Source: Liolophura sinensis
Taxonomy: Eukaryota > Mollusca > Polyplacophora > Chitonida > Chitonidae
DNA length: 64,000 bases
Direction: 5' to 3'
Assembly (NCBI RefSeq): GCF_032854445.1
Contig: NC_088307.1
Location: forward strand, 24,377,953 to 24,441,952
A program made the translations under genes and the position numbers. Positions 10,190 to 64,000 of this stretch are shown in pieces (within the stretch, counting starts at the first letter, position 1; every line of letters begins with the position of its first letter). The notes beneath the pieces were generated by a model that made no database searches, was not told the DNA's origin, and saw only the letters and a program-made list of their open reading frames with translations.

Positions 10190-10600
10190 TGTTATTACGT
10201 CATGTTAATTTTGCACAATAATAATGTTCATATTATTAATGGCATACATGTCAGTGTGTATATTGTTAATGGCATACATGTCAGTGTGTATATTGTTAAT
10301 GGCATACATATGTCAATGTTCATATTGTTAATGTTGTACCCATGTTAATGCTGACATTATTTATTTATATTATTTATTTTTATTGATGTTTTACGCCGTT
10401 CCCAAGAATATTTCACTTATACCACGGCGGCCAGCATTATGGTCGGAGGAAACCGGGCAGAGCCCGTGGCTGACATTATCAATGTTGTACACATAATGTT
10501 CACATTCCTTATACTGTCCACAGCTTACAAAGTTTAAGCTGTACACAGAATAATGCTCACATTATTAACAGTGGACATATGTTAATGTATGTACACTTTA
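10190..10600. repeat. Degenerate 30-bp minisatellite split by a SINE-A
   Basis: Units such as TTAATGGCATACATGTCAGT repeat two to three times at 10235-10320. Looser TGTTAATG / ACATAATGTTCACATT units continue to about 10580, on both sides of the SINE at 10361-10468. Confidence 0.7.
10361..10468 (-). mobile_element. SINE-A, 5'-truncated, with target duplication
   Basis: Tail and conserved body only. GCTGACATTAT is repeated at 10350-10360 and 10469-10479. Confidence 0.85.
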
Positions 10601-28319: not shown

Positions 28320-29145
28320 AATGAATATAATAACATACGATCCCATGCACCAGGTTGTCGACAGAATAGATGGGGTGATTAAAAGAAGACAACATGATGT
28401 TTGAAAACCATAATGAACTTTTTGTCCTTGTAATGTTGCATAATCGAGATATTGCAGTTCAATGTAAGTAAAATGGCACACAATGAGAAAATCAAAAGCA
28501 CCGCCATGTTATCAGTTTTGATCAATTGGACAAGAGGTCTCTCTGTAACTCGAGAATGCAGCCGTTTCCGCTTACGTCACCGGATCCTTTGTCTTTTAAC
28601 CATATGTGCTTGGGCTACAAGTAACGCGACATCGCATTTTCAGTTGCTTTAACATGGCACATCCCGATTTAAAGGAAATTCTGGACGGTGCCCTTCCTTT
28701 ATCTCTTTCACGAATGGTTCATCTCCGGAGGATGAACCGAATGACACATTCTACTATGCACCGAAGCCTTGCAAACATGCCTTGGTAACCAAACTAAGTG
28801 ATTGACCCCGCCTGTAATTAGAGCTGGTTGTACAGCCTGACGTTCGCTGAAGCGCCCTTGTCTTTTACCAATATATGGCGTGCGAACCTGTTCGTCAAAG
28901 TTGGGTTGTTTTACCCGTTTCCTCCAACCACAATATGACGTTATATATCAATCAATCAATCAACCGAACGCTCTCTATCCGTTGGATTCGGCAGCCTCGC
29001 TCTACCCATAATAGAACAAGCTCTACTCATCTGTATTGCTTGCCTATGTCATTTCGGTATCTGGAGATTTCTTATAAAAACTATATTTCAATGCCTTTAA
29101 CTTAATCACCAGTAATATCTTTTTTCGCTCTCAACCTTGCTTATC
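28320..29145. other. Intergenic, no gene recognised; short hairpin
   Basis: An ATG-initiated frame at 28654 (MAHPDLKEIL...) is short and has no family match that I know. It contains the hairpin GGTTCATC / GATGAACC with loop TCCGGAG. Nothing else stands out before the R4 element. Confidence 0.35.
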
Positions 29146-32100
29146 AACTCTGAAGATAATAATCTGTTAAATTTAACATAAAGTGTATTTTCTGAGTGAT
29201 GCAATAGTATTTCTGTTATTGTCGCAGATTATTCTGTTATTGTACCAGACCATTCTGTCATTGCTGCAGATTATTCTGTCATTTTTTTCTTTTGCTGCAG
29301 ACCATTCTGTTATTGTTGTAGATCATTCTGCCATTTATGCAGATCATTCTGTCATTGGGACAGGCCATTCTGTTATTGCAGTAGATCATTCTGCCACTGC
29401 AGCAGACTACTCTGTCATTGCAGCAGATGATTCTTCGATTGTGCAGATTATTCTGTCATTGCTGCGGAGGCATTCTGTCATTGCTGCGGATCATTCTGTC
29501 ATTGCAGCAGATCATTCTGTCATTGCAACAGATTAGTCTGCCATTGCAGCAGATCATTCTATCATTGCTGCAGATCATTCTGTCATTGCAGCAGATCATT
29601 CTGTCATTGCAGCAGATCATTCTGTCATTGCAGTAGATCATTCTGTTATTGCAGCAGATCATTCTGTCATTGCAGCAGATCATTCTGTCATTGCTGCAGA
29701 TCATTCTGATATTGCTGCAGATCATTGTCATTGCAGCAGATCATTCTGTCATTGCAGCAGACCATTCTGTCATTGCAGCAGATCATTCTGTCATTGCACC
29801 AGATCATTCTGTCATTGCTGCAGATCATTCTGATATTGCTGCAGATCATTCTGTCATTGCAGTAGATCATTCTGTTATTGCTGCAGATCATTCTGTCATT
29901 GCAGCAGATCATTCTGTCATTGCAGCAGATCATTCTGTTATTGCAGCAGATCATTCTGTCATTGCAGCAGATCATTCTGTAATTGCAGCAGATCATTCTA
30001 TCATTGCAGTAGATCATTCTGTTATTGCTGCAGATCATTCTGTTATTGCAGCAGATCATTCTGTCATTGCTGTGGATCATTCTGTCATTGCAGCAGATCA
30101 TTCTGTCATTGCAGCAGATCATTCTATCATTGCAGCAGATCATTCTGTTATTGCAGCAGATCATTCTGTCATTGCAGCAGATCATTTTGTCATTGCAGCA
30201 GATCATTCTGTCATTGCAGCAGACCATTCTGTCATTGCAGCAGATCATTCTGTGATTGCATCAGATCATTCTGTCATTGCAGCAGATCATTCTGTCATTG
30301 CTGCAGATCATTCTGATATTGATGCAGATCATTCTGATATTGCTGCAGATCATTCTGTCATTGCAGTAGATCATTCTGTTATTGCTGCAGATCATTCTGT
30401 CATTGCAGCAGATCATTCTGTCATTGCAGCAGATCATTCTGTTATTGCAGCAGATCATTCTGTCATTGCAGCAGATCATTCTGTCATTGCAGCAGATCAT
30501 TCTATCATTGCAGTAGATCATTCTGTTATTGCTGCAGATCATTCTGTTATTGCAGCAGATCATTCTGTCATTGCTGTGGATCATTCTGTCATTGCAGCAG
30601 ATCATTCTGTCATTGCAGCAGAGCATTCTATCATTGCAGCAGATCATTCTGTTATTGCAGCAGATCATTCTGTCATTGCAGCAGATCATTTTGTCATTGC
30701 AGCAGATCATTCTGTCATTGCAGCAGACCATTCTGTGATTGCAGCAGATCATTCTGTGATTGCAGCAGATCATTCTGTTATTGCTGTGGATCATTCTGTT
30801 ATTGCTGCAGATCATTATGTCATTGCAGCAGATTAATCTGTCATTGCTGTGGATCATTCTGTCATTGCTGCAGATTATTCTGTCATTGCTGCAGATTATT
30901 CTGTCATTGCTGCAGATCATTCTGTTATTGCTGCAGATTATTCTGTCATTGCACCAGATCATTCTGTCATTGCTGTGGATCATTCTGTCATTGCAGCAGA
31001 TTAGTCTGCCATTGCAGCAGATCATTTTGTCATTGCAGCAGATCATTCTGTCATTGCAGCAGACCATTCTGTCATTGCAGCAGATAATTCTGTGATTGCA
31101 ACAGATCATTCTGTCATTGCAGCAGATTAGTCTGCCATTGCAGCAGATCATTCTGTTATTGCAGCAGACCATTCTGTCATTGCAGCACATTATTCTATCA
31201 TTGCACCAGATCATTCTGTCATTGCTGTGGATCATTCTGTCATTGCTGTGGATCATTCTGTCATTGCAGCAGATCATTCTGTCATTGCAGCAGATTAGTC
31301 TGCCATTGCAGCAGATCATTCTGTTATTGCAGAAGATCATTCTGTCATTGCAGCACATTATTCTATCATTGCACCAGATCATTCTGTCATTGCTGTGGAT
31401 CATTCTGTCATTGCAGCAGATTATTCTGTCATTGCAGTAGATTATTCTGTTATTGCAGCAGATGATTTTGTCATTGCAACAGATCATTCTGTCATTGCAG
31501 CAGATTATTTTGTCATTGCAACAGATCATTCTGTCATTGCAGCAGATTAGTCTGTCATTGCTGTGGATCATTCTGTCATTGCTGCAGATGATTCTGTCAT
31601 TGTAGCAAATTATTCTGTGATTGCTCCAGATTATTCTGTCATTGCTGCAGATTATTTTGTCATTGCAACAGATCATTCTGTCATTGCTGCAGATCATTCT
31701 GTCATTGCAACAGATCATTCTGTCATTGCTGCAGATTATTCTGTCATTGCTGCAGATTATTCTGTCATTGCTGCAGATCATTCTGTTATTGCTGCAGATT
31801 TTTCTGTCATTGCACCAGATCATTCTGTCATTGCTGTGGATCATTCTGTCATTGCAGCAGATTAGTCTGCCATTGCAGCAGATTAGTCTGCCATTGCAGC
31901 AGATCATTCTGTTATTGCAGCAGACCATTCTGTCATTGCAGCACATTATTCTATCATTGCTGTGGATCATTCTGTCATTGCTGTGGATCATTCTGTCATT
32001 GCAGCAGATCATTCTGTCATTGCAGCAGATTAGTCTGCCATTGCAGCAGATCATTCTGTTATTGCAGCAGACCATTCTGTCATTGCAGCACATTATTCTA

Positions 32101-34204
32101 TCATTGCACCAGATCATTCTGTCATTGCTGTGGATCATTCTGTCATTGCAGCAGATTATTCTGTCATTGCAGTAGATTATTCTGTTATTGCAGCAGATGA
32201 TTTTGTCATTGCAACAGATCATTCTGTCATTGCAGCAGATTATTTTGTCATTGCAACAGATCATTCTGTCATTGCAGCAGATTAGTCTGTCATTGCTGCA
32301 GATTAATCTGACATTGCTGCAGATGATTCTGTCATTGTAGCAAATTATTCTGTGATTGCTCCAGATTATTCTGTCATTGCTGCAGATTATTTTGTCATTG
32401 CAACAGATCATTCTGTCATTGCTGCAGATCATTCTGTCATTGCAACAGATCATTCTGTCATTGCTGCAGATCATTCTGTCATTGCTGCAGATTATTCTGT
32501 CATTGCTGCAGATCATTCTGTTATTGCTGCAGATTATTCTGTCATTGCACCAGATCATTCTGTCATTGCTGTGGATCATTCTGTCATTGCAGCAGATTAG
32601 TCTGCCATTGCAGCAGATTATTTTGTCATTGCGACAGATCATTCTGTCATTGTAGCAGATTATTTTGTCATTGCAACAGATCATTCTGTCATTGCTGCAG
32701 ATCATTCTGTCATTGCTGTGGATCATTCTGTCATTGCTGTGGATCATTCTGTCATTGCTGTGGATCATTCTGTCATTGCACCAGATCATTCTGTCATTGC
32801 TGCAGATCATTCTGTCATTGCTGTGGATCATTCTGTCATTGCTGTGGTTCATTCTGTCATTGCTGTGGATCATTCTGTCATTGCAGCAGATTATTCTGTC
32901 ATTGCAGCAGATTATTTTGTCATTGCGACAGATCATTCTGTCATTGTAGCAGATTATTTTGTCATTGCAACAGATCATTCTGTCATTGCTGCAGATCATT
33001 CTGTCATTGCAGCACATTATTTTATCATTGCAACAGATCATTCTGTCGTTGCAACAGATCATTCTGTCGTTGCAGCAGATCATTCTGTCATTGCTGTGGA
33101 TCATTCTGTCATTGCTGTGGATCATTCTGTCATTGCAGCAGATTATTCTGTCATTGCAGCAGATTATTTTGTCATTGCGACAGATCATTCTGTCATTGCA
33201 GCAGATCATTCTATCATTGCAGCAGATCATTCTGTCATTGCAACAGATCATTCTGTCATTGCACCAGATCATTCTGTCATTGCTGCAGATCATTCTGTCA
33301 TTGCTGCAGATTATTCTGTCATTGCTGCGGATCATTCTGTAATTGCTGCAGATCATTCTGTCATTGCAGCAGATTATTCTGTCATTGCAGCAGATCATTC
33401 TGTTATTGCTGCAGATCATTCTGTCATTGCAGCAGATTAGTCTGCCATTGCAGCAGATCATTCTGTGATTGCAGCAGATCATTCTGTTATTGCTGCAGAT
33501 CATTCTGTCATTGCAGCAGATCATTCTGTCATTGCTGCAGATTATTCTGTCATTGCTGCGGATCATTCTGTTATTGCAGCAGATCATTCTGTCATTGCTG
33601 CAGATCATTCTGTTATTGCTGCAGATCATTCTGTCATTGCAACAGATCATTCTGTCGTTGCACCAGGTCATTCTGTCATTGCAGCAGATCATTCTGTCAT
33701 TGCAGCACATTATTCTATCATTGCACCAGATCATTCTGTCATTGCTGTGGATCATCCTGTCATTGCTGCAGATCATTCTGTCATTGCTGCAGATCATTCT
33801 GTCATTGGTGCAGATTATTCTGTCATTGCTGCAGATCATTCTGTCATTGGTGCAGATTATTCTGTCATTGGTGCAGATTATTCTGTCATTGCTGCAGATC
33901 ATTCTGTCATTGCAGCAGATTATTCTGTCATTGCTGCAGATCATTCTGTCATTGCTGCAGATTATTCTGTCATTGCTGCAGATTATTCTGTCATTACTGC
34001 AGATCATTCTGTTATTGCTGCAGATTATTATGCAAATTATATAACACTCGTATTATATCAGTCCAACATAAAGTTTATATTGGATTAAGATGATGTTATG
34101 TTAAATATGAGATAGTATTACTCTGTAATAAAACTGCGGTATACACATTCTGGAATCACCCAAGAAAACGACTTTCCGTTAAAATTGACACATCTTTTGG
34201 AGTG
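29146..34204. repeat. R4 inverted-repeat element with giant internal 21-bp array
   Basis: The left flank (29161-29215: AATCTGTTAAATTTAACA, then TGAGTGATGCAATAGTAT) and right flank (34040-34204: CCAACATAAAGTTTATATTG, TGTTAAATATGAGATAGTAT, CTTTCCGTTAAAATTGACA) are the two halves of R4, a 245-bp MITE-like element whose compact copy lies at 45152-45396. Between them the element's own central motif is repeated about 230 times. The normal R4 centre has this motif about once, with ATTCTGTTA on both sides of it. Confidence 0.9.
29217..34035. repeat. 21-bp satellite array, about 230 units
   Basis: Unit ATTCTGTCATTGCAGCAGATC and variants (TGCTGCAG, TGCTGTGG, TGCACCAG, GATTATT, GATTAGT). Being 21 bp, it reads as 7-residue repeats in all six frames: HSVIAAD and QQIILSL forward, MICCNDR on the reverse. 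One reverse frame is open for 1,248 codons (34007-30261). Higher-order periods are visible: 504 bp (24 units; TGATATTGCTG at 29831 and 30335) and 735 bp (35 units; blocks near 31617 and 32352). I read this as a satellite, not a gene. Confidence 0.95.
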
Positions 34205-34498: not shown

Positions 34499-34745
34499 TA
34501 CACTAAAAGTTAATCTGTTGAATTTACCACAGTCTGTCGTTTGAGTGATGCTCGAATGTATTCTGCTACAGATTATAACACAATATTGTGTCATATTCAA
34601 CATAATATCTTGTTACAGTGTCACAAAATCGTTATATTAGAATTATCAGTACATATGCACTAAGTCTAACAGAATAATCCGCCGCTAGGATAGTGTATAT
34701 TATAGAATCACTCAGATAAACAGGCTTTCTGTTAAAACTATGATG
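34499..34745. repeat. R4 copy, compact
   Basis: Left end ACACTAAAAGTTAATCTGTT, then GAGTGATGCTCGAATGTATT, centre TTCTGCTACAGATTATAACA, right end GGCTTTCTGTTAAAAC. Only one degenerate central unit. Confidence 0.8.
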
Positions 34746-35515: not shown

Positions 35516-35654
35516 GAATTCAATGTTATATATTCAAAGTTTAGCACCATGTGGTCAATCAATGCTAAATCGACAGCCAAAACAGCAAAATAAAACACAA
35601 ATGCGTCTGTACGGCACGACTATACATTTATAAAACAACGTTGGAAAGCTATAG

Positions 35655-35812
35655 AATGTATTCTATTATTATAGCCTAATACCTTATCATATTCAATATA
35701 ATATTCTGTTCGTTTAATACAATCTTAATGTTGAACTAATAGAATATGTGTAGAAGAATAATATCAGACAAGAGGCTTTCTGTTAAATTTAACAGATTAC
35801 GTTTTTTAGAGT
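35655..35812. repeat. R4 copy, 5'-truncated
   Basis: GAATGTATTCTATTATTATAG, TATTCAATATAATATTCTGT and the end GGCTTTCTGTTAAATTTAAC plus AGATTACGTTTTTTAGAGTA. It begins 18 bp beyond the GPCR stop and probably forms part of its 3' UTR. Confidence 0.78.
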
Positions 35813-35830: not shown

Positions 35831-37210
35831 TCAGGTGGAGGTTTCGTTTATTACAATGTTTACTTGATTGGTGGGAGATGAACTGTCCGTTGAAGACGTC
35901 CTGAGACAGCAATGGCGACCACAACAGTCTCTACAACTTTGGCAGTCGTGACAGCCAAAAATACGACGAAGGAGATGTTTGTAGGCCTGTTGGAATTGTG
36001 CGTTCGTCATGGTGTACACAACGGGGTTCAGCGAGATCTGCACCCAGGTGAACAAGGGCGTTATCACGTGACACGTTCTGCAGTTCATCTTGGGGTCAGC
36101 GATACCGACCAGTGTGTTTGGACCGACACAAAGGATGAACAATACACATATGGCCAGCATGGACAGCGTGAGTTGTCTCCCCTGTTGGTCACGCGACAAG
36201 CTCTCGCCGCTAGGTGGCCGATGTCTTTGCATCCGCCGCCGACTCTTGTATAACACAATCCCGATGCTGCAGTATGAGACAACCATGAGGACAACAGGCA
36301 CAGCCAAGAAACTGGCATAGATAACGACTCCGTGGCTGTCGGTGTCCGTTGTGTCATCGCTCCCGTAAGTACAACTCCGTATCTTTCGGCGGAAAGAATA
36401 CTCACCCCAAGCTTTGAATATAGCGGGTATATTGAGAACAACCGGAGCCAACCAGCACGACACCAGCATGGCAGCTATTTTCGACCGAGTGTATATTCGG
36501 TCCTTGTGTTCAGGATACACTACATTGACAAAGCGGTTCACAGCGATGGTGCACAGCGAAAACACAGCGATGCCAAATACGGTGTGCTTCGAAGCTGCAA
36601 ACCAGCTACAGAAGGTATCGTCCCAAAGCCAGCTGCCGGCGTGGAGGACCGATGCATTGAAAGGGAGGATTACAGCACAGAAGAGTGCATCGGCTGCGCT
36701 TAAATTACACACAAACAAGTTATTGGCGTTCCCTCTCAGTTTGGGCGTGATGACGATTGTTAACAGCGTAAAAATATTCCCAGTAAAACCAAGCACGGAA
36801 CAAAAGATAGCCGCCACTTCCGCTGCAACAAAGGCGCCACGAAGTGTATCGTCGCTGGAATTCATCCACGGTGTCATCGTCGTCATATTCAGAGTCATAG
36901 TTCCAGTTAAAGCCACTGTAGCATTATTGTTATCTAGTAATGTCATGCTTGTAGTCGACACTGGTCTCGGGGTTGTTCCCGTCATCATTACTGCGCTTGA
37001 CGACGTCATGGTTACAGTTGAATGTGTTGACGTTCCTGACGTCAAGGCCGCGCTCAAGCTCTTATTCCCATCACTTAATGTCGTATCCTGACTTGTACTT
37101 GTTGAATCGGTTACGGTTGTTGTGAAGGTGGACATTACCATACCGTGCCTTAATGAGGAGCAGATTACACAGCCACACAGCATGAAGCTAACATCACTCC
37201 ACCCCTTCAT
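35831..37210 (-). CDS. Class A GPCR, Tre1/moody-like, intronless
   Basis: 459 codons in one open frame. Residues 1-120 form a Ser/Thr-rich, probably heavily O-glycosylated ectodomain with N-glycosylation sites (about N49, N96, N108, N117); residues 10-20 are hydrophobic and could be a signal sequence. Seven membrane segments follow at about 126-152, 163-185, 200-224, 243-263, 294-321, 346-371 and 382-401. Class A marks: GN at 144-145, NLSAAD (169-174), Cys201-Cys280 disulfide, NPVVY (395-399). The DRY motif is replaced by NRF (225-227), and CWxP by LCVGPN, as in the Tre1/moody/GPR84-like group. The tail is Cys-rich (420-435, seven Cys), a likely palmitoylation cluster. It probably couples to a G protein at the plasma membrane; the ligand is unknown. 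ATG at 37210 is the first in frame. Intronless, so possibly a retrocopy or an ancestrally single-exon receptor. Confidence 0.88.
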   Translation of the reverse strand: MKGWSDVSFMLCGCVICSSLRHGMVMSTFTTTVTDSTSTSQDTTLSDGNKSLSAALTSGTSTHSTVTMTSSSAVMMTGTTPRPVSTTSMTLLDNNNATVALTGTMTLNMTTMTPWMNSSDDTLRGAFVAAEVAAIFCSVLGFTGNIFTLLTIVITPKLRGNANNLFVCNLSAADALFCAVILPFNASVLHAGSWLWDDTFCSWFAASKHTVFGIAVFSLCTIAVNRFVNVVYPEHKDRIYTRSKIAAMLVSCWLAPVVLNIPAIFKAWGEYSFRRKIRSCTYGSDDTTDTDSHGVVIYASFLAVPVVLMVVSYCSIGIVLYKSRRRMQRHRPPSGESLSRDQQGRQLTLSMLAICVLFILCVGPNTLVGIADPKMNCRTCHVITPLFTWVQISLNPVVYTMTNAQFQQAYKHLLRRIFGCHDCQSCRDCCGRHCCLRTSSTDSSSPTNQVNIVINETST

Positions 37211-37620
37211 AACTGGAGGGTGTTTCCTACCGACTCGGGGTGGTCGCTTGCGTCATTAGAAATCTCAGGGTTGGCCACTTGCTCTTCAATCTCGATCTGT
37301 GAGCCTGAAACCAAATCCGTTCGACAAAATTCATTACAGGTGGTAAGTAAACATCGTCTGATCGCTTTCTTTCCAAGCAAATTTTGAAATTACCGTTTGA
37401 AAATTCTATAAAATAAGAATGTAAGTTCAACATTCTCTTTGTATGACCCACTCCATTTCTTAAATGCATTTCTTCCATCCAACTTAACCATTTCAAACAT
37501 CACCCATTTCACCTTTATATTTTCGTTCCGACCAACTTCGCTCCGAATGTTTGAGATACTATGGCTTCATGAACTGATCGTATTGTCCACGTCTCATACT
37601 TGACACTCGTTGTCACCATT
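37211..37620. other. 5' flank of the GPCR gene
   Basis: Upstream of the receptor ATG. An open frame at 37227-37496 has no recognisable domain. Confidence 0.35.
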
Positions 37621-37624
37621 CTAA

Positions 37625-37722
37625 ACGTTTTAATTTTAACAGAAATTCTGTTGTATGAGTGATGCTAGGGTGTATTCAACATAATAGTCTGTTAGTTTAA
37701 AGTGAACATAAAGTCTGCCACT
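37625..37722. repeat. R4 copy, internally deleted
   Basis: TTTTAACAGAAATTCTGTTG then GAGTGATGCTAGGGTGTATT, jumping to TCAACATAATAGTCTGTTAG; the central motif is missing. Confidence 0.7.
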
Positions 37723-38639: not shown

Positions 38640-38803
38640 TTAGTGTCTGTCTTTATGTTTACTTTATAAAATCTTTGTATTGAATTAATAGAATGTGTGT
38701 TATATTTAACAGAATAATATGTGACAGTAGCAGAATGCATTCTAGCATCACGCAGACTAGAGACTTTCTGTTAAAATTAACAGATTAATTTTTTTTAGTA
38801 TAG
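38640..38803. repeat. R4 copy, partial
   Basis: GAATTAATAGAATGTGTGTT, TATATTTAACAGAATAATAT, GCATTCTAGCATCACGCAGA and the right end CTTTCTGTTAAAATTAACAG. Confidence 0.78.
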
Positions 38804-44523: not shown

Positions 44524-45110
44524 TTTACAGCATAGAGAATAAGAACGGGGCAGTGACGACAGTGTGATAGACGTACAGCATAAACAGTAAAGCCAGAACA
44601 GCGACGACAGTGTGATAGGCGTACAGAAAAGTGAGTAAGGCCAGGGCAGCGAAGACAGTGTGATAGACGTACAGCATAGAGAGTAAAGCCAGAGCAGCGA
44701 CGACTGTGTGATAGACGTACAGAAAAGAGAGTAAAGCCAGAACAGCGACAACAGTGTGATACACGTACAGCATAGAGAGCACAGCCAGAGAAGGGACGAA
44801 AGTGTGATAGACGTACAGCATGGAGAGTAAAGCCAGAGCTCCGACGACTGTGTGATAGACGTACAGCACAGACAGCACAGCCAGAGAAGGGACGAAAGTG
44901 TGATAGACGTACAGCATGGAGAGTAAAGCCATAGCATCGACGAAAGTGTGATAGACGTACAACATGAAGAGTAAAGCCAGAGCAGCATACCAGTTAAAAC
45001 AGAACACTGACAACAGGTGTGGTAGTTAGTCACACGTAACCGGATAAAATGTGGTCTCTTGTCAATATACCCCATGTATAGTTTTATGCTGGAGTCATTT
45101 GGTAACACAC
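44524..45110 (+). repeat. R2 copy with expanded 48-bp core array
   Basis: About nine units of GTGATAGACGTACAGCATAG then AGAGTAAAGCCAGAGCAGCG and ACGACAGT, followed by the unique R2 right part (CACACGTAACCGG, CTTGTCAATATACCCC). The 16-residue repeats in open frames (LLSMLYVYHTVVAALA) are by-products. Confidence 0.9.
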
Positions 45111-45151: not shown

Positions 45152-45396
45152 ACACTCAAAACATCAATCTGTTATTTTTAACAGAATGTCTGTTGTGATG
45201 ATAGAATGTTTCCTGCTATTGCAGCAAATTTTTCTGTTAAATATAACGCACATATTCTATTAATTCAACATAAAGATTCTATTAGACTAACGGGATATTA
45301 TGTTATATATGACACAGTATTATGTTATAATAACAGAACATAATCTAGCATCACTCAGACTTTCTGTTAAAATTAACAGAATAATTTTTTGAGTGT
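45152..45396. repeat. R4 reference copy, compact and complete
   Basis: Ends ACACTCAAA (45152-45160) and TTTGAGTGT (45388-45396) are inverted repeats; both halves carry CTGTTA-type inverted blocks, making the element nearly palindromic at its ends. Its centre TGCTATTGCAGCAAATTT then TTCTGTTAAATATAAC is the single-unit form of the 21-bp satellite. Confidence 0.85.
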
Positions 45397-51319: not shown

Positions 51320-52512
51320 CTGATAAACACATATGCATGTGAATAGTTAGTTGCATTTCAAGAAAAATGTTAAGAAAATATCAATCAATTACAACTTATC
51401 CGTATCAGTCGGGGCTTTCATTTTCAAGATGACTGCAAAAAGTTAATGGGTTAAATTTACCAGAAAGCCTGTTGTTTGAGTGATGCTAGAATGTATTCTG
51501 TTATTAAAGCAGATTATTCAGTTAAATATAACTTACATATTGTACTAATTCGACATAGTTCTATTATAGATTGAGAGGATATTATGTTGAACATGACAGT
51601 TACATTCCAGCGTCACTTAGACAACGGACGTTAAATTTAACCGATTAATTTTTTGAATTTTCGGTTTCAATTTTTGCAAACGTTATTATCAATAGGCTTT
51701 TCCAGTTATTTTATAAAGTTAGGAGTTCTTTTTGTAAAACATTTCACTTAGTATTTTTAACGGAAATGTTTACAAAAGTCGAACGTATTGCTGTACCGAA
51801 ATGCCCATTGCTCACCTCTCCTTGTTTTTAGAACGTTGCTGAAGCTATTTAAAAATGTACCAGTCTTCGTGACGTCACTGAGAGGAAGATGAGTGAATCA
51901 AGGCCACATTGACGTCACGAAGCTCCAAGATCCAATTCAAGGGGAACAAGCGATGGCTTTTTGAGAAAATTATAGGCTGCGTATATGATTTCGTATGATT
52001 TCTTTCTATTTGTTTCATTACCTGTAAATTACATACAAGTTTACAAAATAATAGAAAATTGTGAGACAATCCTTACATTTTATGTACTCTAATAACTTTC
52101 GGTTTCAGATTAATAATGCAGTTCATCTTTAAATTGTTCCCACACCGTAAAAGACTGTTCCAACAAGAAGCAGCAGTTCCAAGTAAATTACTTCAGGCGT
52201 TATATACACATATATGCTTGCTCCAAGAATGAATGAATGGTTATGGCTTCACGCCACATCGGCAATATTTCAGCAATATCGGGTCGAGACATGAACGGAG
52301 AACAACGGGAGCAATTCCTCAGAAAGATGAGTAAAAAAGAAAACATCGCTATAATACGCAGTTTACCGCCCCTACAGTTTAAAATTGTTTCTACATAAAC
52401 CTGTTTGTCACAACATAAAACTTATGTGTTGTCAATATTAAGTGTTCATATGATATAGATCACATTTCAGATTTTTTCTTAAGTCAACACTGGCTTCGTG
52501 ATTACGATCCTT

Positions 52513-52600
<88 letters not shown>

Positions 52601-55600
52601 CTATTTCAGCGTTTTTATCCAATAAGTCAGGCACATGAATCAACCGAACAGAGATTCCATTAGCTAGCAAATGAACCCAAGTCAGGGGAACGAATCAACC
52701 GAACTGAGACGCCATTACCTAACAAATGAACCCAAGTTAAGCACATGAATCAACCGAACTGAGACGCCATTACCTATCAAATCAACCCAAGTCAGGCGCA
52801 CGAATCAACCGAACTGAGACGCCATTACCTAACAAATGAACCCAAGTCAAGCACATGAATCAACCAAACTGAGACGCCATTACCTATCAAATCAACCCAA
52901 GTCAGGCGCACGAATCAACCGAACTGAGACGCCATTACCTAACAAATGAACCCAAGTCAGGCGCACGAATCAACCGAACTGAGACGCCATTACCTAACAA
53001 ATGAACCCAAGTCAGGCGCACGAATCAACCGAACTGAGACGCCATTACCTAACAAATGAACCCAAATCAGGCGCATGAATCAACCGAACTGAGACGCCAT
53101 TACCTAGCAAATGAACCCAAGTCAAGAACATGAATCAACCGAACTGAGACGCCATTACCTAACAAATGAACCCAAATCAGGCGCACGAATCAACCGAACT
53201 GAGACGCCATTACCTAACAAATGAACCCAAGTCAAGCACATGAGTCAGCCGAACTGAGACGCCATTACCTAACAAATGAACCCAAATCAGGCGCATGAAT
53301 CAACCGAACTGAGACGCCATTACCTATCAAATGAACCCAAGTCAAGAACATGAATCAACCGAACTGAGACGCCATTACCTAACAAATGAACCCAAGTCAG
53401 GCGCACGAATCAACCGAACTGAGACGCCATTACCTAACAAATGAACCCAAGTCAGGCGCACGAATCAACCGAACTGAGACGCCATTACCTAACAAATGAA
53501 CCCAAGTCTTGCTCATGAATCAACCGAACTGAGACGCCATTACCTAGCAAATGAACCCAAGTCAAGCGCATGAATCAACCGAACTAAGACGCCATTACCT
53601 AACAAATGAATCCACAGACACTTTACAAGTGTAACAAGCACTAATGTTTATCAACCACTTTGTCTTATATTTGGCATTATCCAACAAACCGTGTTTCAGA
53701 AATGTAGTCAAATGACTACAGATGTGCCCTGAACCATTCATACATATTGGTGGGATTTGAAGTTTACTGAGGACATATCCAAATAATTCCCTCCAGAAAA
53801 ACACGCACTCGATGGTCGTAAGAATCAGTCTTGTTGCCAAACTGTCTTGTACCCATCATCAAGCAACGCAATCCCATGGAATTGCATGACAACCGACACT
53901 TTTTGCAGCTCGAACATTTCACCCTTTAAACGCTAGAGCAAAATAGCGTTTCCGAAACAGCCGGAGAAGTTTCCGTCACAATGACGATTATTTCGGATGG
54001 CTCTTTAGCTTTTGATTGGCCACCAGTCTAATCATCTCTAATTGCGTGGCGCCATCAAGAGGGGGCCGGAAGTGGCTAATGACCCAGGACGAGACAGTCT
54101 TGACTGGCACTGACTCGTTCCCTGCCAGGAGGTTATCGAGTCTGCCCATGTGCTGTTCACGTGTTGTCAGAACACTATCACTTAGATCAGCACAGTGTCT
54201 TCAGATCGTCTTAGGTTTTCCTGAGATTCTGTAATTTTAATAGTCCTGTGTTGAATGACACTGAAAGCGGGTTCCTTCTTGCCAAAAAATCTTCCACTGA
54301 TGCACTAATTTCCATGCGTATCTCTGAATTCTTTTTGCACTTAATATTGATGTTTTAAACGCCTTCACGTAAAAGACTGTGCATTTGTGCCGTTCAGAAT
54401 ATTTCACCTTTTCATTCCTGAAACAGCGTGCCTAGATATATCTTTTGGAATGGTGAGTCCATGCCGCCAAAGTGCTGCCGGCATTTAAGTATCATGGTGA
54501 AGACACCTGACGTGACACTCCATCCAGTCACAGTATATACAGACACCGGACCAACCAGTCCTGGTTTCCTTGCTCTAACCTCTCAGTGCTAAGCGTCAAG
54601 CCAGGCAGCAACAAGTACCATTTTCAAAGACTTTAATATGACCCGGTCCGGGTTTGATCCCAGGTCCCCAGACTTCGAGGCGGACACTCAAACCACCGAA
54701 GCGGTCTTGTTATATTATGATAATTATATAGTAAAGAAAGCCAGTAGTAAAGAAAGAAGTTATACCAATTAGTCAGTTGTAAAGAAAGTAGTTATACCAA
54801 TTAGTCATTGGTAATAAAAGTAGTTACTTCAATTAGTCACGGTCTGGCATCAACCTGCGGATGGTCGTAAGTTTCCCCCGGGCTCCGTCCGGTTTCACCC
54901 CACCATAATGCTGGCCGCGGTCGTGTACGCGAATATTCTTGAGTACGGCGTAAAACACCAATCAAATAAATAAATAAATCAATTAGTCAGTTGTAATGAA
55001 AGTAGTTATACCAATTTGTCAGTAAGAAAGAAAGTAGTTATACCAATTTGTCAGTAAGAAAGAAAGTAGTTATACCAATTAGTGAATAGTAAAGAAAGTA
55101 GTTACACAAATTAGTCAGTAGTAAAAAAGTAGTTATACCAATTAGTCAGAAGTAAAGAAAGTAGTTATACCAATTAGTCAGTAGTAAAGAAAATAGTTAT
55201 ACCAATTAGTGGGTAGTAAAGAAAGTACTTGTACAAATTAGTCAGTAGTAAAGAAAGTAGCCGTGCTAATTAGCCAGTGGTAAAGGAAGCAGTTATAACA
55301 ATTAGCCAGTAGTAAATGAAATAGTTATACCTATTAGTAAGTAGGAAAGAAAGTAGTTATACTAATTAGTCAGTAGAAAAAACATAAGTTATATCAACTA
55401 GTAGTAAGAAAATCCGCGGAGAAAAATACACCAAACGCAGCAGAGGAACACGTGGCCATGGACGTGAAATTATGTCACAAATTCATACTTCAAAAATGGA
55501 CTCGAATTTTAAGTCGACCATGCAATGTTTATTTATCAGTGTTGTAAAATGTTTTTGTATGCATTTCTTCGATTGCTGTGAGCCGCTTCGGTGGCCTAAT

Positions 55601-58600
55601 GATTAGAGCGTCGGCCTCAAGGTCGTGAGATATAGCAATTTGGCGGCATCGACATGCCCTGCTACAAGAGGATACACTGTATGTACACACACTCAACGAC
55701 TCATCGTCGTCGTATGCCTGAATAATTGTTCAGTGCGGTGTGAAACCCCAAGCACATATACCTGCATACATTGGTGTGTAATTCTTTACTTAGAATTCTT
55801 CACTTACATGACTATACAGGTTCATGGGTGGAGCAGACGTGCGAAGACATGCATGGAGAAACAATTATGATTGGCCCCCGAAGGACCACAACCACTGAAA
55901 AGTAGCGCATGCGCTCTGGAATTGGTGAATGTCGAGTAGAGAGGTCCTTGCCACTTGGCTCAAAGGAGAAGTAAAATGGTATGAGAAGTAAAATGGTATG
56001 GTACCCATCATTATCGATTAATATCATTAAACCCGATTACCAAGGGATAAAGAACGTACAAAGCCTACCCCCAAAAGTAAATTCGTTTGCATGCTCCAAA
56101 CTTGATTCGCCCATGTTGTTTTTGTTGCAGTAAGTGTTCACAGTCGATGGTGCCATATTACAGAACAATCTCTCTCGGTCCACTGGTCGAACTGTTCGGT
56201 CCCACATCGGCCTGTGTCGTCCCGCATCCTTCTTTAGTCGTTTTTCCTTTGCTCTGCGGTTTTGAAACCAGACCTGCACAACGCGCATGTCCAGACCGGT
56301 GTCGCTGCTGAGTTTTTCCCGCACGTGCCGACTCGGCTTGGCGCTTTTGGTGTAGGCGGATTTCAGGGCCTCCAGCTGTGTCGCCGTTATGGTTGTCCTC
56401 GGGCGTTTGATGCCGCTGTCAGAATCACCGCTTCTTGAATCTGAAAACCCGCATGTTTAAAATGTTTTCTTCAAAGCAAAACCGATGTTGTCCAAACGAC
56501 AGAGTGGAGGTTCAACACTCGTCAAAAAAAAAAGAATTGCTTTGTGACTTTTGTTTTAGGTTGTTTTGGAAATCGATTTTCCGCTTATCGACCTGAAACC
56601 CCCGATTTATGGTTTACGAAAACTATGCATCGAAACAGACATTCGTATACCAGCAATCAGTAAGAACGTTCCAGGTCAATAATCGCCAGGTCAATTCCCA
56701 AAAACCATGCATAACCCAAACTACCTAAGAACTAAGAAAGTATATTAAGTACGAAAATGGGACGAATCATTCATTATTATTTTGCAAAACTTGACGCTCA
56801 GAACGCACGCGTAAATGGCGTCGAGACGTATGCATTTATTATTATTTACAAGATCGCAAAAACGAATTCTTTCTAGGTTATTTGTCCGAAAAAATTCACT
56901 TTTACGTTGTGGAGGACATGTGCCAGAGAACAAAGGAAACCTCTGCTTTGATGGCTTTCTTTACAGCTATATAAGAACAAGGCCTCACACTGGTTCCGAT
57001 CGTTGGAGCACTGGTTCGTTGCGAATTTCGGCTGTGACCCAATGGTTGGTAACTAGCTTTTGGTTTGGAGTCACAAAGTTTTCTTAGATATCTATATCAT
57101 CAAATACAGTAGTTTATTCTGGGTATAGATTAGTCCAGATTTCCTCCACTTATAGGCTGCTACCATGCACATGAATAAGTCTAAGCTAAAAATTCTAGGA
57201 ATATTAAACCACAATAACATAAATAAATCAATCAATAGATCGAAAAAAGAGTGCCTCGTATTGGTGGTTGTTATTGTTATATACGGTAGTAATGAAGACT
57301 TACCTCTGCCATCAGATGAATAGGTATCAAAATCACTCTTGCAAACCAACTTCCGATTTTCCAGAAGATAAAACTGGTCTCCAGTGGCAAACGTTTGTGA
57401 ACAGACAGAGCACGTGAAACACCGAGTGTGATATACATGCGACTGCGCACGCCGTACCACCTCTGTTGGTGGGATACCTTCTTTGCATCCGGCACATTTG
57501 CACCCGTACTTCCTGAAAGGGATGATCGCTTTTTAAAACATGTTTTATTGAATATTCCAGTACATTTTAGGCCACGTACATAGCAAAGATTTATTTGCAT
57601 AAATATAATTAATTTGTTCGTACATTAAACTAAGCTGCTAGATAAAGCAGAATTAACACTTAGAATGAAACCCTAATTTTGGTACAAGCGACTGGATTTC
57701 ATTGGTTAAGTATGATCATTTCCCTTCTATCACACGGTTGTCACTCCTCTAGTTTTACTCTCCATACTGTAGTCTTGTTTTCCTATATTTTTTCCTGTAT
57801 GCAAATGTTATGCTGTGTTCGTAAATGCTTTTCTCAGCTGATGTACACACAAAATAACGTAAAGAGAACTTGAAATGCCCCCCTCACAGCAATCTCACCA
57901 CTACGAAAGGTTTTCCAATATTTAGGGTGATCGTATACAAGTACTTGGCACAATTCATGTAAATCCCAAGCCTAAAAGCGTCTTAGTCTGGATTTTAAGA
58001 ATTGCTGATCATTGACCATAAATATTGTGAGTCCGAATACGTCCTGAGAGAGTTTCATTAGCCCGTCAACCCGACCTCTAATTACCTTGATAGCTTAATT
58101 GTTGACTCAGACCTAGTGCCTGTGCTAATTGCCCCACAATCGTCCTGTCTCTGACTAATTAGGCAACATTTATCCTGACCGGCGTCTGGACAGTTTAGCA
58201 AGGTTGCTGGCTGGCCAATAACGGAAACATTGACTTACATATATAGATGTAGACTGTACTCCATCATACCCATGAGATCTGATCTTAAAGACAAAGAGCT
58301 GACTTCCTCTCCGACCGTATGTGGGAAGGTCTGTCACCAACCTGCGGATGGTTGTGGGTTTTCCTCTGTGCCCTTTGCCCGGTTTCCTCCCACCATAATG
58401 ATGGCCGCCGTCGTACACGTGAAATATGTGTACCTGGCACAACATTATCCCTGAAGCATATCAGCTTGACAGTATTTATCACACAGCCTCCTCTGTGGAT
58501 GTAGGTAAGGAATAGGACGGTTGACAAGTACTCGATGAAGGGCGGTGACTATCTCCGGACGGTAGGCTTCCACAACACTTAAAATTAATTTGTGTCAGAT

Positions 58601-61600: not shown

Positions 61601-62184
61601 TTAGGTTTCATCAAAATCGGTGCAGTAAGTTGGGAGGAGATGGATGGACAAAATTTTGTTTACAGACAACTGGACACAGGGACAGGCAGGGTGATTCCAG
61701 AATACACCCTTCCTCCCCTTCGCTGAGGGGGTTATAATTAAATATGTTTTCAAATAGTTAATATATGAACAATGGAGATATACGCTTCTGAACATGATAT
61801 GAAATATGAACAAGGGAGATTTACGCTTCTGAACATGATATGCATTATGATCAAGGGAGACACACGCTTCTAAACATGATATGAAATACGAACAAGGGAG
61901 ATATACGCTTCTGAACATGATATGAAATATGATCAAGGGAGATATATGATTCTGAACACGATATGGAATATGAACAAATGCAAATTGTGACCGTATAAAT
62001 CGATGACCAATGTAAGTGGATGTATCTGAAGGTTTCCCTTACCTGTCGTGTAACCCTGCGCAGAGCTTTGTCCTTTCAACTCTTCCGTTTCCAGAGTTTT
62101 GCCGGACGATGGTCTCGTGTCATCACGAATAACTTTATGTCCCGAAACACTTTGAAAGTCATTGGATTCCGGTGAATCAGACAT
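50931..62184 (-). CDS. Lhx3/4: LIM-homeobox transcription factor, Lhx3/4 (Lim3) class
   Basis: Four firm exons (62184-62043, 60140-59966, 57512-57304, 56440-56069) join in phase and encode a short N-terminus, LIM1, LIM2 and a 60-residue homeodomain; 50931-51319 is a candidate last exon, so the 3' boundary is uncertain. LIM2 ([36 protein letters not shown]) and homeodomain ([47 protein letters not shown]) match vertebrate Lhx3/4. Family role: nuclear DNA-binding factor in motor-neuron and neuroendocrine fate, acting with LDB cofactors that bind the LIM domains. After KKDAGR the protein departs from the usual RWGQYFRNM, and LIM1 is diverged, so this may be a derived paralogue. Introns contain R2, R3, SINEs and several tandem arrays. 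Confidence 0.9.
51433..51655. repeat. R4 copy, compact
   Basis: GGGTTAAATTTACCAGAAAG, GAGTGATGCTAGAATGTATT, centre CTGTTATTAAAGCAGATTAT, right end AACCGATTAATTTTTTGAA. One central unit. Confidence 0.82.
51656..52510. other. No gene seen
   Basis: Would be intron if the candidate Lhx 3' exon is real. A weak SINE-like stretch lies at 52225-52335 (CGCCACATCGGCAATATTTC). Confidence 0.35.
52516..52598. repeat. (TA)n microsatellite
   Basis: About 41 uninterrupted TA units, cruciform-prone. Confidence 0.97.
52610..53615. repeat. 55-bp minisatellite, about 18 units
   Basis: Unit CGAATCAACCGAACTGAGAC, GCCATTACCTAACAAATGAA, CCCAAGTCAGGCGCA. Variants alternate AGGCGCAC, AAGCACAT and AAGAACAT. Directly follows the TA microsatellite. 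Confidence 0.96.
53620..54435. other. No gene seen
   Basis: Unique-looking sequence between the 55-bp array and a SINE-C. Confidence 0.35.
54440..54709 (-). mobile_element. SINE-C with intact head
   Basis: Body GTGAGTCCATGCCGCCAAAG through AGGCAGCAACAAGTACC; head at right, complement of GACCGCTTCGGTGGTTTGAG, with box B-like GGGATCAAACCCGG. Confidence 0.87.
54725..55400. repeat. 32-bp minisatellite interrupted by a SINE-A
   Basis: Unit GTAGTTATACCAATTAGTCA then GTAGTAAAGAAA, about 16 copies, split by the SINE at 54840-54978. Confidence 0.93.
54840..54978 (+). mobile_element. SINE-A inserted in the 32-bp array, 11-bp target duplication
   Basis: TCAATTAGTCA borders it at 54829-54839 and 54979-54989. 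Since the array itself contains this word, the insertion clearly post-dates the array. Confidence 0.9.
55585..55757 (+). mobile_element. SINE-C, short form
   Basis: Head GCCGCTTCGGTGGCCTAATG through ATTAGAGCGTCGGCCTCAAG, then directly the tail ATAATTGTTCAGTGCGGTGT and CCCCAAGCAC; most of the body is missing. Confidence 0.85.
56069..56440 (-). CDS. Lhx3/4: Lhx exon 4: homeodomain
   Basis: Acceptor GGGTTTTCAG at 56441. After a short acidic linker (SRSGDSDSG) the full homeodomain runs from KRPRTTI to KRLKK, with W48, F49, Q50, N51 and R53 in VWFQNRRAK; then [16 protein letters not shown] and a tail to FTFG. Donor G|GTAGGC, phase 1 out. Confidence 0.92.
56600..56775 (+). repeat. R3 repeat copy
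   Basis: CGAAACAGACATTCGTATAC, GAACGTTCCAGGTCAATAAT and AAGAACTAAGAAAGTATAT recur, inverted, at 59000-59175 and in part at 63005-63195. Confidence 0.72.
57304..57512 (-). CDS. Lhx3/4: Lhx exon 3: LIM2
   Basis: Acceptor CCCTTTCAG, donor AGAG|GTAAGT. Zinc ligands follow the LIM pattern: CAGC, then HTRC, CSVC, and [15 protein letters not shown] is nearly the vertebrate Lhx3 VVRRAQDFVYH. Confidence 0.93.
57660..57790 (-). repeat. R2 repeat fragment
   Basis: GAAACCCTAATTTTGG, GGATTTCATTGGTTAAG, TCTATCACACGGTTGTCACT and CTAGTTTTACTCTCCATACT follow R2 order in reverse; in Lhx intron 2. Confidence 0.6.
58299..58428 (+). mobile_element. SINE-A, body only
   Basis: CTTCCTCTCCGACCGTATGT through CACCATAATGATGGCCGCCG; the tail is missing. 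Confidence 0.82.
58590..59465 (-). repeat. Tandem array of partial LIM1-exon copies with splice-donor region
   Basis: Seven degenerate units of about 66-80 bp (58590, 58651, 58721, 58792, 59225, 59302, 59381). In gene sense each resembles the last about 40 nt of Lhx exon 2 plus the first about 20 nt of its intron. Exon: GATGAGATATTCTGTGCCGA then GGATTTTTTCAAGTACG and TTTGACACAA. Unit at 58590: GATCAGATCTTCTGTGTGGA then GGATGTTTTCAAGGAAA and TCTGACACAA. An R3 copy interrupts the array at about 59000-59175. The array lies in Lhx intron 2, about 490 bp downstream of the true exon. Confidence 0.82.
59000..59175 (-). repeat. R3 repeat copy within the LIM1-derived array
   Basis: Complement of CGAAACAGACATTTGTATAC, ACGTTCCAGGTTAATAATCG and AGAACTAAGAAAGTATATA, as at 56600-56775. 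Confidence 0.75.
59575..59735 (-). repeat. R2 repeat fragment
   Basis: GCTTAACCCATAGTGATAGA, GTAAATGTTGCTACTATTG and GTCGAATTTCACCGGTAAC parallel the R2 copy at 39661-39955. Confidence 0.65.
59758..59910. repeat. Direct repeat flanking the LIM1 exon, copy 1
   Basis: CAATTTGCTGGCTGAT, CTCAGTTAACGATCTTCATA, TTGTTTGAACTCGACCTGAT and TTCTTCAGTGCGGCGTAGAA; copy 2 is at 60408-60553 on the other side of the exon. Both end in a SINE-A-like tail. Confidence 0.88.
59966..60140 (-). CDS. Lhx3/4: Lhx exon 2: LIM1
   Basis: Acceptor CGCCTTTCAG, donor CAA|GTACGT. Reads [20 protein letters not shown], then [11 protein letters not shown] and [18 protein letters not shown] ligands C-x2-C, H-x2-C, C-x2-C, C-x2-D all present. 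Phase 1 in, phase 2 out. Its 3' end is the source of the degenerate array downstream. Confidence 0.93.
60196..60310 (-). repeat. Divergent SINE-A relative
   Basis: TGTTTAACGCCATGCTC and ACCTTTGACAAGCTACTGAA, CTTTCCCACG in SINE-A-like order. Confidence 0.45.
60408..60553. repeat. Direct repeat flanking the LIM1 exon, copy 2
   Basis: CAATTTGCTGGCTGATTGAC, TTCATACCAGTTCCTGTTTA, GAACTCGACCTAATCTCTAG and TCTTCAGTGCGGCGTAAAGC; estimated about 90% identical to copy 1. Confidence 0.88.
60551..60702 (-). mobile_element. SINE-A, 5'-truncated
   Basis: TACGCCGTACTCAAGAATAT, GACGGCGGCCAGCATTATGG through AAACCTTCCCACTTA; abuts the direct repeat. Confidence 0.82.
61131..61174. repeat. C-rich tract
   Basis: CCACCCC / CCCCCACCCCCACCCCCA run, quadruplex-prone on the minus (gene-sense) strand, in Lhx intron 1. 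Confidence 0.85.
61195..61745. repeat. About 168-bp core repeats (pearl/Helentron-like?)
   Basis: Two to three diverged units: AAAATAATTACTCGATTG (61367) and AAAATAATTACTTGATTG (61535) mark the period; GGTACAGGCAAAGTTTC and TTCATCAAAATCGGTGCAGT belong to the unit. The right end is CCCTTCGCTGAGGGGGTTAT. Architecture (core repeats plus a distinct end) resembles bivalve pearl elements; I cannot prove the class. Confidence 0.6.
61765..61980. repeat. 41-bp minisatellite in Lhx intron 1
   Basis: Five units of GAACAAGGGAGATATACGCT then TCTGAACATGATATGAAATAT. Confidence 0.93.
62043..62184 (-). CDS. Lhx3/4: Lhx exon 1: start and N-terminus
   Basis: ATG at 62184 opens [20 protein letters not shown]; 47 codons plus one base, donor CAG|GTAAGG. 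Phase 1 fits the LIM1 exon (G plus GT gives Gly). N-termini of this class vary, so the exon is supported by splice site and phase rather than homology. Confidence 0.7.
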
Positions 62185-63195: not shown

Positions 63196-63639
63196 CGTTC
63201 AAAGAGAAGTCATCAACAGTTTTCATTGTTGACAGAAAGAGGTAAGGAACGTTCAACGCGAAGAAATTAAATCATTGTTCAAATCGTTTAGCATATTAGT
63301 TCATAATAATGGATTTTCGTTTATCAAAATATGTATTTCATTTGCACTTTAATTACAAGTGTTAATTTATCCAACGTTGCGTTCAACATAATAAATATGC
63401 AGGCAATATGACCTATTCTATTCCGGGGAGGTTGTTTGGTGTATTATTATATGTATCTATGTTAGATTCCAGGGTATGTAGATATATGTACTTTTTTGGC
63501 AACACTATAGATATTTTCTGCAATTACCTACATGTCCGTTACACACCTGTCGATATGTATGTAAAGATGTACGTGAATCTCTTTTGTTACCATTACATAC
63601 GTCTTGTTACATACGCCAGATTTCAATGCAATGCTAGAC

Positions 63640-64000
63640 AAAATCATTCATACAATACAATGGTAGCCGTAAGTATTCATATAATACAATGGTAGCCATA
63701 ATCATTCATACAAGGGTAGCCATAATCAATCATTCATTACAATGCTAGCCATAACCAATCATACAATACATTGATAGCCGAGATAATTCATACAATACAA
63801 TGGTATCAATAATCTATCCTTCAATACAGTACAATGGTAGCCATGATCACTCATACAATACAATGGTAGCCATAGTCACTCATACAATACAATGGTAGCC
63901 ATAATCACTCATACAATATAATGGTAGCCATAGTCACTCATACAATACAATGGTATCAATAATCTATCCTTCAATACAGTACAATGGTAGCCATAATCAC
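63640..64000. repeat. 29-bp minisatellite running off the window
   Basis: Units of ACTCATACAATACAATGGTA then GCCATAGTC, interspersed with a TATCAATAATCTATCCTTCA variant; about 12 copies to the window edge. Confidence 0.93.

What the first reader, a model, noticed from the sequence alone, without database searches (positions are those of the whole stretch)
29146..34204. A 5-kb satellite born inside a 245-bp inverted-repeat element
The 21-bp array is bounded on the left and right by the two halves of R4, whose compact form occurs at 45152-45396 and, in part or whole, at 34499, 35655, 37625, 38640 and 51433. In the compact copies the centre has the motif about once, already bordered by ATTCTGTTA on both sides, an ideal seed for slippage or unequal exchange. 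One copy of seven has gone from about one unit to about 230. This is direct evidence for how a satellite starts from a MITE centre.
Basis: seen in the sequence. Interest (0 to 1): 0.86.

Follow-up and report, generated by a model that had tools for sequence, protein, structure and literature searches.

The report
Repeat array grown inside a mini-transposon
In a chiton genome, one copy of a common 256-base mini-transposon has turned a 21-base piece of itself into about 230 tandem copies, and other copies elsewhere in the same genome carry 2 to about 20, so the birth of a repeat array can be followed in stages.

Summary
Observation confirmed. A 21-bp array (29210-34026, about 230 units) sits in phase inside one copy of a palindromic mini-transposon; both flanks match the element far above chance. 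Scaffold lengths identify the genome as the chiton Liolophura japonica. The element is a 256-bp, TA-flanked MITE; 1,619 places match its unit-to-right-arm junction.

Units share locus-specific variants, so duplications look local. Two duplicated loci differ by five units. The window array holds 24- and 35-unit block duplications.

Additions: the MITE interior is itself a decayed array of six ~22-bp units, and the array is a new expansion of unit 1. Unit 2 also expands, with a 23-bp period (8 loci); single loci show a 56-bp and a 235-bp (near whole-element) unit. Units 3 and 4 showed no convincing expansion.

Growth of MITE-internal repeats is already known (miDNA4, Xstir, Tetris). New here: the family, the graded series and the older array inside. 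"Satellite" overstates one 4.8-kb locus; no copy between about 20 and 230 units was found; the copying mechanism is inferred.

The parts
29146..29209 (+). Left arm of the array-bearing MITE copy (consensus about 13-63; the outermost ~12 bp are too decayed to align)
   Evidence: 89.8% identity to the consensus over 59 aligned positions; z 7.6-15.4 against six other copies, one in both orientations
29210..34026 (+). Tandem array, 230 units of 21 bp, consensus ATTCTGTCATTGCAGCAGATC; the first 15 units are clearly more divergent than the rest; 24-unit (504 bp) and 35-unit (735 bp) block duplications inside
34027..34204 (+). Right arm of the same MITE copy (consensus 85-256), in phase with the array, ending GGAGTG
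   Evidence: 81.5% identity over 173 positions; z up to 24.7
45153..45395 (+). Compact full copy of the MITE with one 21-bp unit (at 45210-45230)
   Evidence: 92.6% to consensus; one unit; DNA fold z -8.45
51433..51660 (+). Compact copy with one unit (51495-51515), internally deleted
   Evidence: 88.1% to consensus; one unit
38666..38794 (-). Truncated copy (consensus 6-136) with one unit
   Evidence: 93.0% to consensus
34499..34744 (-). Old copy (consensus 21-256) with one degenerate unit
   Evidence: 83.0% to consensus
35652..35812 (-). Copy that has lost the unit region
   Evidence: consensus 102-201 at 86.0%; no unit
37625..37672 (+). Fragment of the left arm (consensus 20-67)
   Evidence: 91.7% over 48 positions

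Best explanation
R4 is a 256-bp non-autonomous DNA transposon (MITE) with TA target duplications and near-perfect ~70-75-bp inverted repeats. Its interior is an old, decayed tandem array of six ~22-bp units. Adjacent units keep short direct repeats (ATTCTGYTA...ATTCTGTTA, 21 bp apart), so misaligned replication or repair sometimes duplicates unit 1, or unit 2, in register. Once two similar units exist, slippage and then unequal exchange between longer homologous blocks lengthen the array and homogenise it locus by locus. Most expanded copies found stay at 2-7 units; the window copy passed into runaway growth and reached about 230. Shown: the anatomy, the in-phase site, the graded series up to about 20, locus-specific homogenisation, block duplications and a five-unit difference between duplicated loci. 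Inferred: the molecular mechanism, the rate, and the order of events at this one locus.
For: In-phase array at consensus 64-84 with both arms present. Graded series in 26 non-window loci: 2 units x6, 3 x6, 4 x4, 5 x3, 6, 7, 8, about 12, 13, 17, about 19-20; 22 of 26 keep at least 15 aligned bases of the left arm and 25 of 26 at least 14 of the right arm. One-unit forms dominate: 1,619 unit-to-right-arm junctions (one per copy, multi-unit copies included) against 23 non-window loci plus the window with true unit-to-unit junctions among the 100 listed of 114 matches to an equal-length pattern. Units are more alike within than between loci, 0.882 vs 0.848, 0 of 2000 shuffles (15 loci, L074 left out as a duplicate of L073). 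L073/L074 have flanks identical at 531/544 and 381/384 aligned positions (56 and 16 gap positions) but differ by five units. Block duplications of 504 and 735 bp in the window array. The MITE interior self-aligns at lag 19-25 with scores 68-88 against maxima of 56-61 in 400 shuffles. Unit 2 expands at 23 bp in 8 loci. The first direct repeat has T at its seventh base, as the second does, in 22 of 23 scorable expanded copies (3 of 26 not scorable) against 65 of 100 listed exact one-unit junctions, Fisher p 0.002 (65/35 counted by eye's list).
Against: No locus between about 20 and 230 units was found, so the last jump is not documented. Unit 4-4 tandem junctions give 0 matches and unit 3-3 one doubtful match, although their direct repeats are as long (9 and 10 bp) (natural unit 4-5 junction 613 matches), so direct repeats alone do not explain the site. 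Single-strand folding does not separate expanding from non-expanding units. The array copy shows no TA duplication and its outer left 12 bp do not align. Units at the right end are not clearly more divergent than the interior (mean distance 2.0 vs 1.67; left end 3.73), so the edge decay expected under unequal exchange is seen on one side only. The T enrichment could reflect homogenisation rather than cause; its comparison set is exact matches only and includes a cluster of six neighbouring copies. No allelic or population length data: the left flank has a single place in the assembly.
Confidence: 0.85

Rival explanations
1. The ancestral MITE carried (or captured) several 21-bp units, and one-unit copies are contractions.
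For: Tandem arrays contract as easily as they expand; the interior is an old tandem array; unit 2 seems lost in four loci by the matched letters. A capture model was proposed for miDNA4 (review PMC12628747, mechanisms section). L063 and L067 share the GCATCAG unit variant, as descent from one multi-unit ancestor would give.
Against: One-unit copies outnumber detected multi-unit copies by roughly 70 to 1; neighbouring units share private variants, e.g. ATCAG in all four units of L063 and TGTAGCAG in all three of L076; each of the 26 multi-unit loci keeps at least one R4 arm.
Confidence: 0.08
2. An unrelated 21-bp satellite inserted into or recombined with an R4 copy by chance.
For: None found beyond the array's size.
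Against: The array unit is an R4 segment (its consensus differs from the R4 consensus unit at 3 of 21 places), it enters and leaves in register, and the same site is expanded in 26 other copies.
Confidence: 0.02
3. Growth was by rolling-circle copying of an excised circle and reintegration, not by stepwise slippage or exchange.
For: The gap between about 20 and 230 units, and block duplications of 24 and 35 units.
Against: The array is flanked by the two arms of one element copy in phase, which stepwise growth explains without excision; many copies hold only 2-7 units, and L073/L074 differ by a few units.
Confidence: 0.15

Closest known systems
miDNA4 MITE-satellite of Xenopus tropicalis (Scalvenzi and Pollet 2014; known here only through reviews: part 1 of the mechanisms section of PMC12628747, and passages of PMC9659126)
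   Same: Tc1/mariner-type MITE holding a satellite monomer as one copy or as a variable array, with short direct repeats proposed as the trigger.
   Different: There the review reports a proposed capture of a pre-existing repeat; here the unit is one of six related units of the element's own body. Different sequence and phylum; sequences were not compared.
Tetris / TIR-220 of Drosophila virilis (PMC4079207; abstract and first part of the discussion read)
   Same: Non-autonomous inverted-repeat element whose internal repeats grew into kb arrays; alleles with three versus four repeats.
   Different: About 220-bp unit inside the TIRs, 8-10-bp target duplications; here a 21-bp unit on one side only and TA duplications.
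Xstir of Xenopus (Hikosaka and Kawahara 2004; through review PMC12628747)
   Same: MITE, tandem array and composites of both in one genome, array from internal MITE sequence.
   Different: A stem-loop excision model between neighbouring elements was proposed there.
Pearl, DTC84 and Cg_HINE elements of bivalves (passages of PMC7492417 and PMC5139131)
   Same: Molluscan non-autonomous elements with variable central tandem repeats related to satellites.
   Different: Pearl repeats are about 160 bp, up to six, and Pearl was re-categorised as a non-autonomous Helentron; R4 has inverted-repeat ends and TA duplications.
BrickBuilt MITE of Porphyromonas gingivalis (PMC4596501, abstract read)
   Same: MITE containing a minisatellite of similar unit size (23 bp).
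   Different: Bacterial; sequences were not compared.

Membership tests
MITE (non-autonomous DNA transposon) | Short, with terminal inverted repeats | tested here: met
   256-bp consensus; positions 1-69 perfectly inverted, near-perfect to 74; hairpin z -8.45 for the 45152 copy
MITE (non-autonomous DNA transposon) | Constant-length target duplication | tested here: met
   TA on both sides in 7 of 9 copies whose alignment spans 1-256 (the exceptions are L023 and the copy at 45152); not visible at the array-bearing copy
MITE (non-autonomous DNA transposon) | High copy number, dispersed | tested here: met
   3931 first-look candidates; 1,619 junction matches, 808/811 by strand; listed rows together fall on all 13 large scaffolds
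MITE (non-autonomous DNA transposon) | No coding capacity | not tested
   No frame search was run on the consensus; 256 bp is too short for a transposase (inference)
MITE (non-autonomous DNA transposon) | Mobilised by an autonomous transposase (Tc1/mariner suspected from TA) | not tested
   No autonomous partner was sought
Satellite DNA | Tandem array with concerted evolution | tested here: met
   230 units, mean pairwise identity 0.864 over 225 ungapped units, 0.799 to units of other loci; block duplications
Satellite DNA | Abundant, long arrays at many loci or in heterochromatin | tested here: not met
   One 4.8-kb array; the other loci parsed have about 20 units or fewer, at the sensitivity of the patterns; heterochromatin not testable
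Helitron/Helentron (Pearl-like) | No target duplication, no long terminal inverted repeats (definition recalled) | tested here: not met
   R4 has inverted repeats and TA duplications

The most novel reading that the evidence does not exclude
R4 is a recurring nursery of tandem repeats: an old 22-bp array became a mobile element, was scattered in thousands of copies, and now restarts new arrays at two adjacent units (21 and 23 bp), at 56 bp and at near whole-element scale (235 bp). Array birth would thus be a cycle (array to MITE to array), with start probability set by the match between neighbouring units and by unit-specific structure.
Probability: 0.4. Interest if true: 0.7.

Novelty: new member of a known kind. 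Interest (0 to 1): 0.55.

Why it matters
How a tandem array starts is usually inferred from end products. Here one genome holds a common seed, about two dozen small expansions at the same position that look mostly separate, internal controls (units 2, 3 and 4 of the same element) and one runaway case. That allows start frequency, the effect of seed homology, step size and the small-to-large transition to be estimated from existing data and from population long reads.

Tried and rejected
Nine regions around other arrays in the window were checked for flanking inverted repeats. Six had none of 16 nt or more; one was swamped by an AT run; two had weak pairs (36 nt at 75% around the arrays at 54742-55406, 19 nt at 79% around 10230-10333) that I did not follow. 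So whether other arrays here sit in mobile elements is open. The first unit-counting alignment was too permissive and was replaced by a stricter one (discarded, one search used). L081 and L087 came up in multi-unit searches but have one true unit and are not counted. Ten further loci were classed as one-unit from the matched letters alone and not fetched (C11:5994542 is unclear). A single u3-u3 match (three mismatches) reads like a mutated natural u2-u3 junction and was not counted; it was not fetched. Folding of four-unit constructs gave low energies for units 1 and 4 and weaker ones for 2, 3 and 5; it does not match which units expand, so hairpin strength was dropped as an explanation. A random 10-kb sample of the genome, meant as an unbiased census, could not be fetched. 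Allelic length variation could not be tested: the unique part of the left flank has one place in the assembly (the right flank search did not complete). Rfam (gathering thresholds) and tRNA scans of the window were empty. Paper searches for earlier reports were made; none of the titles or abstract openings listed names this chiton repeat, but only those listings were seen and most subscription papers are not in that library.

Full report
WHERE. The window lies at G000:C13:24377953-24441952 in an assembly of 609,464,459 bases and 632 contigs. Contig lengths 96,433,062 (C1), 37,343,639 (C9), 25,057,479 (C4) and 19,479,325 (C5) equal the longest scaffold, N50, scaffold_12 and scaffold_13 printed for the chiton Liolophura japonica in PMC11068029, which also gives 632 scaffolds (passages read). 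The printed total, 609,495,693, is 31 kb larger than the tool's. That paper reports HiFi reads averaging 8,347 bp at 14X, so a read can in principle span the 4.8-kb array; I could not check reads.

THE OBSERVATION. TRF calls a 21-bp array of about 226 copies at 29292-34029 with a short piece at 29211-29283. Aligning unit by unit gives 230 units, the first at 29210 and the last at 34006. The left flank (29146-29220) and right flank (34021-34204) match the other R4 copies above dinucleotide shuffles (the one failure is the right flank against a fragment lacking that half).

THE ELEMENT. The compact copy has 39 other scored genome matches. Twenty-one of them at 20 fetched loci, plus that copy, gave a 256-bp consensus. 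Positions 1-69 are perfectly inverted in the consensus and 70-74 nearly so. In 7 of the 9 copies whose alignment spans 1-256, TA stands on both sides. All 21 carry exactly one 21-bp unit at consensus 64-84; they were found with a one-unit query, so this sample is biased. In 36 fetched loci (20 one-unit, 16 multi-unit) the longest insertion in the aligned path is 4 nt (large insertions would instead cut the local alignment short, and only the best copy per locus was scored). The window copies at 45152, 51436, 38794 and 34499 have one unit, degenerate in the last; 35655 and 37625 have lost the site.

THE SERIES. A 37-base unit-to-unit pattern gave 60, control 0. Two equal-length 35-base patterns gave 1,619 unit-to-right-arm junctions and 114 unit-to-unit matches; both controls were 0. 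Among the 100 listed rows, 23 non-window loci are true multi-unit copies. Together searches gave 26 such loci, all fetched and parsed: 2 units at L065, L070, L071, L082, L084, L085; 3 at L059, L069, L075, L076, L077, L083; 4 at L060, L061, L063, L068; 5 at L062, L064, L078 (one truncated); 6 at L066; 7 at L067; 8 at L073 and 13 at L074 (first unit partial in both); about 12 at L080 (first partial); 17 at L072; about 19-20 at L079. The counts are mine from a scripted alignment; L077 was scored 2 by the script and 3 by reading the printed flank. The searches allow at most three mismatches, so old or divergent copies are missed. About 1.5% of copies detected this way are multi-unit.

INDEPENDENCE. 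Within-locus unit identity is 0.882 against 0.848 between loci; none of 2000 shuffles reached the difference (15 loci L059-L073, L074 left out). Several loci carry a private variant or an alternating two-unit pattern (L063 ATCAG, L068 GCCGATT in three of four, L061 and L072 alternating). L063 and L067 share GCATCAG, so some expanded copies may descend from one expanded ancestor. L073 and L074 lie 105 kb apart, have flanks 97.6% and 99.2% identical over aligned positions (56 and 16 gap positions), and differ by five units inside the array.

THE WINDOW ARRAY. The first 15 units differ from the array consensus at 3.73 positions on average, units 16-215 at 1.67 and the last 15 at 2.0: clear edge decay on the left only. 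Exact repeats of 226, 162 and 160 bp recur at 735 or 504 bp, that is 35 and 24 units, visible as repeated unit-type strings. Single-unit slippage alone would not give this; unequal exchange or an equivalent block process would. The unique part of the left flank has no second place in the assembly, so no allele could be compared.

AN OLDER ARRAY INSIDE THE ELEMENT. The consensus interior 64-195 divides into units of 21, 23, 22, 21, 22 and 23 bp, starting ATTCTGCTA, ATTCTGTTA, ATTCTATTA, ATTCTATTA, ATTATGTTG and ATTATGTTA. Self-alignment at lags 19-25 scores 88 for the whole consensus and 68 for 85-195, which leaves out the expanded unit; the maxima of 400 shuffles are 61 and 56, and control lags score 14-34. 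TRF at relaxed settings reports period 22, 5.3 copies, at 85-201. The units resemble a 22-bp near-palindrome.

OTHER EXPANSIONS OF THE SAME ELEMENT. A unit-2 tandem junction gives 13 matches in 8 loci. All 8 lie inside R4 copies with 23-bp periods and 2.3-7.4 copies; L100 and L101 look like duplicates of each other. L086 has a 56-bp unit (unit 1 plus a variant of unit 2) in 2.6 identical copies. L104 has most of the element (consensus 52-254) in tandem at 235 bp, four long copies, followed by a 123-bp derivative (TRF counts 5.3). Unit 4 to unit 4 gives 0 matches while the natural unit 4 to unit 5 junction gives 613 at equal length and mismatch number; unit 3 to unit 3 gives 1, probably a mutated natural junction, not fetched. 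Units 5 and 6 were not tested. Four loci show unit 1 joined directly to unit-3-like sequence by matched letters; I fetched them, and the script anchored the right arm from consensus 107 in three; the two on C7 may be copies of one event.

MECHANISM. Most likely: direct repeats between neighbouring units allow in-register duplication by slippage or microhomology-mediated repair; longer homology then lets unequal exchange take over and homogenise. In favour of the homology step, the first direct repeat has T at its seventh base, as the second does, in 22 of 23 scorable expanded copies, against 65 of 100 listed exact one-unit junctions (Fisher p 0.002; 65/35 counted by eye's list, which includes six neighbouring copies on C11 and the last unit of L086) and 9 of 21 in the fetched sample (read). 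Homogenisation after expansion could produce the same bias. Why units 1 and 2 but not 3 and 4 expand is unexplained: direct repeats are similar and single-strand folding does not separate them.

KNOWN VERSUS NEW. MITE-internal repeats growing into arrays are established: miDNA4 and Xstir (through reviews), Tetris, Pearl and related bivalve elements, and a bacterial case. R4 works like miDNA4. It meets the MITE criteria tested; an autonomous partner was not sought. It does not meet the abundance criterion of a satellite. In the listings of six paper searches I saw no description of this chiton family; that is a limited check. Value lies in the completeness of the series in one genome and in the older array inside the element.

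Noticed in passing
window 35834-37252 (-): 473-aa open stretch of a rhodopsin-family receptor (7tm_1, E 1.2e-36), lying between R4 copies at 35652 and 37625; besides itself the search (8000 candidates scored) gave one close relative (67% identity) and one weak one.
   Followed up: partly
L104 (C11:29883361-29886601): Most of the R4 element in a 235-bp tandem array of four long copies, followed by a 123-bp derivative: near whole-element tandemisation of the same MITE.
   Followed up: partly
L086, 398-544: 56-bp unit inside an R4 copy, 2.6 copies, 100% identical: probably a very recent duplication.
   Followed up: partly
L096-L103: Unit 2 of R4 expanded with a 23-bp period, 2.3-7.4 copies, in eight loci.
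   Followed up: yes
C11:30860499-30898789: Six identical exact-match R4 junctions on one strand within 40 kb, possibly a larger duplicated block.
   Followed up: no
window 28390-28666: Part of another dispersed repeat family, with many places at 71-79% identity.
   Followed up: no
window 54441-54476 and 55634-55669; 10219-10237 and 10549-10567: Weak inverted-repeat pairs (36 nt at 75%, 19 nt at 79%) enclosing the 32-bp and 30-bp arrays; possibly two more arrays inside elements.
   Followed up: no
window 44526-44986, 52624-53614, 61763-61977, 63624-64000: Further tandem arrays (48, 55, 41 and 29 bp units); no flanking inverted repeats of 16 nt or more found, except that the 52624 region was obscured by an AT run.
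   Followed up: partly
L069 and L060, right flanks: Sequence resembling a tRNA-derived short element (box motif recognised from memory) next to or inside R4 copies.
   Followed up: no
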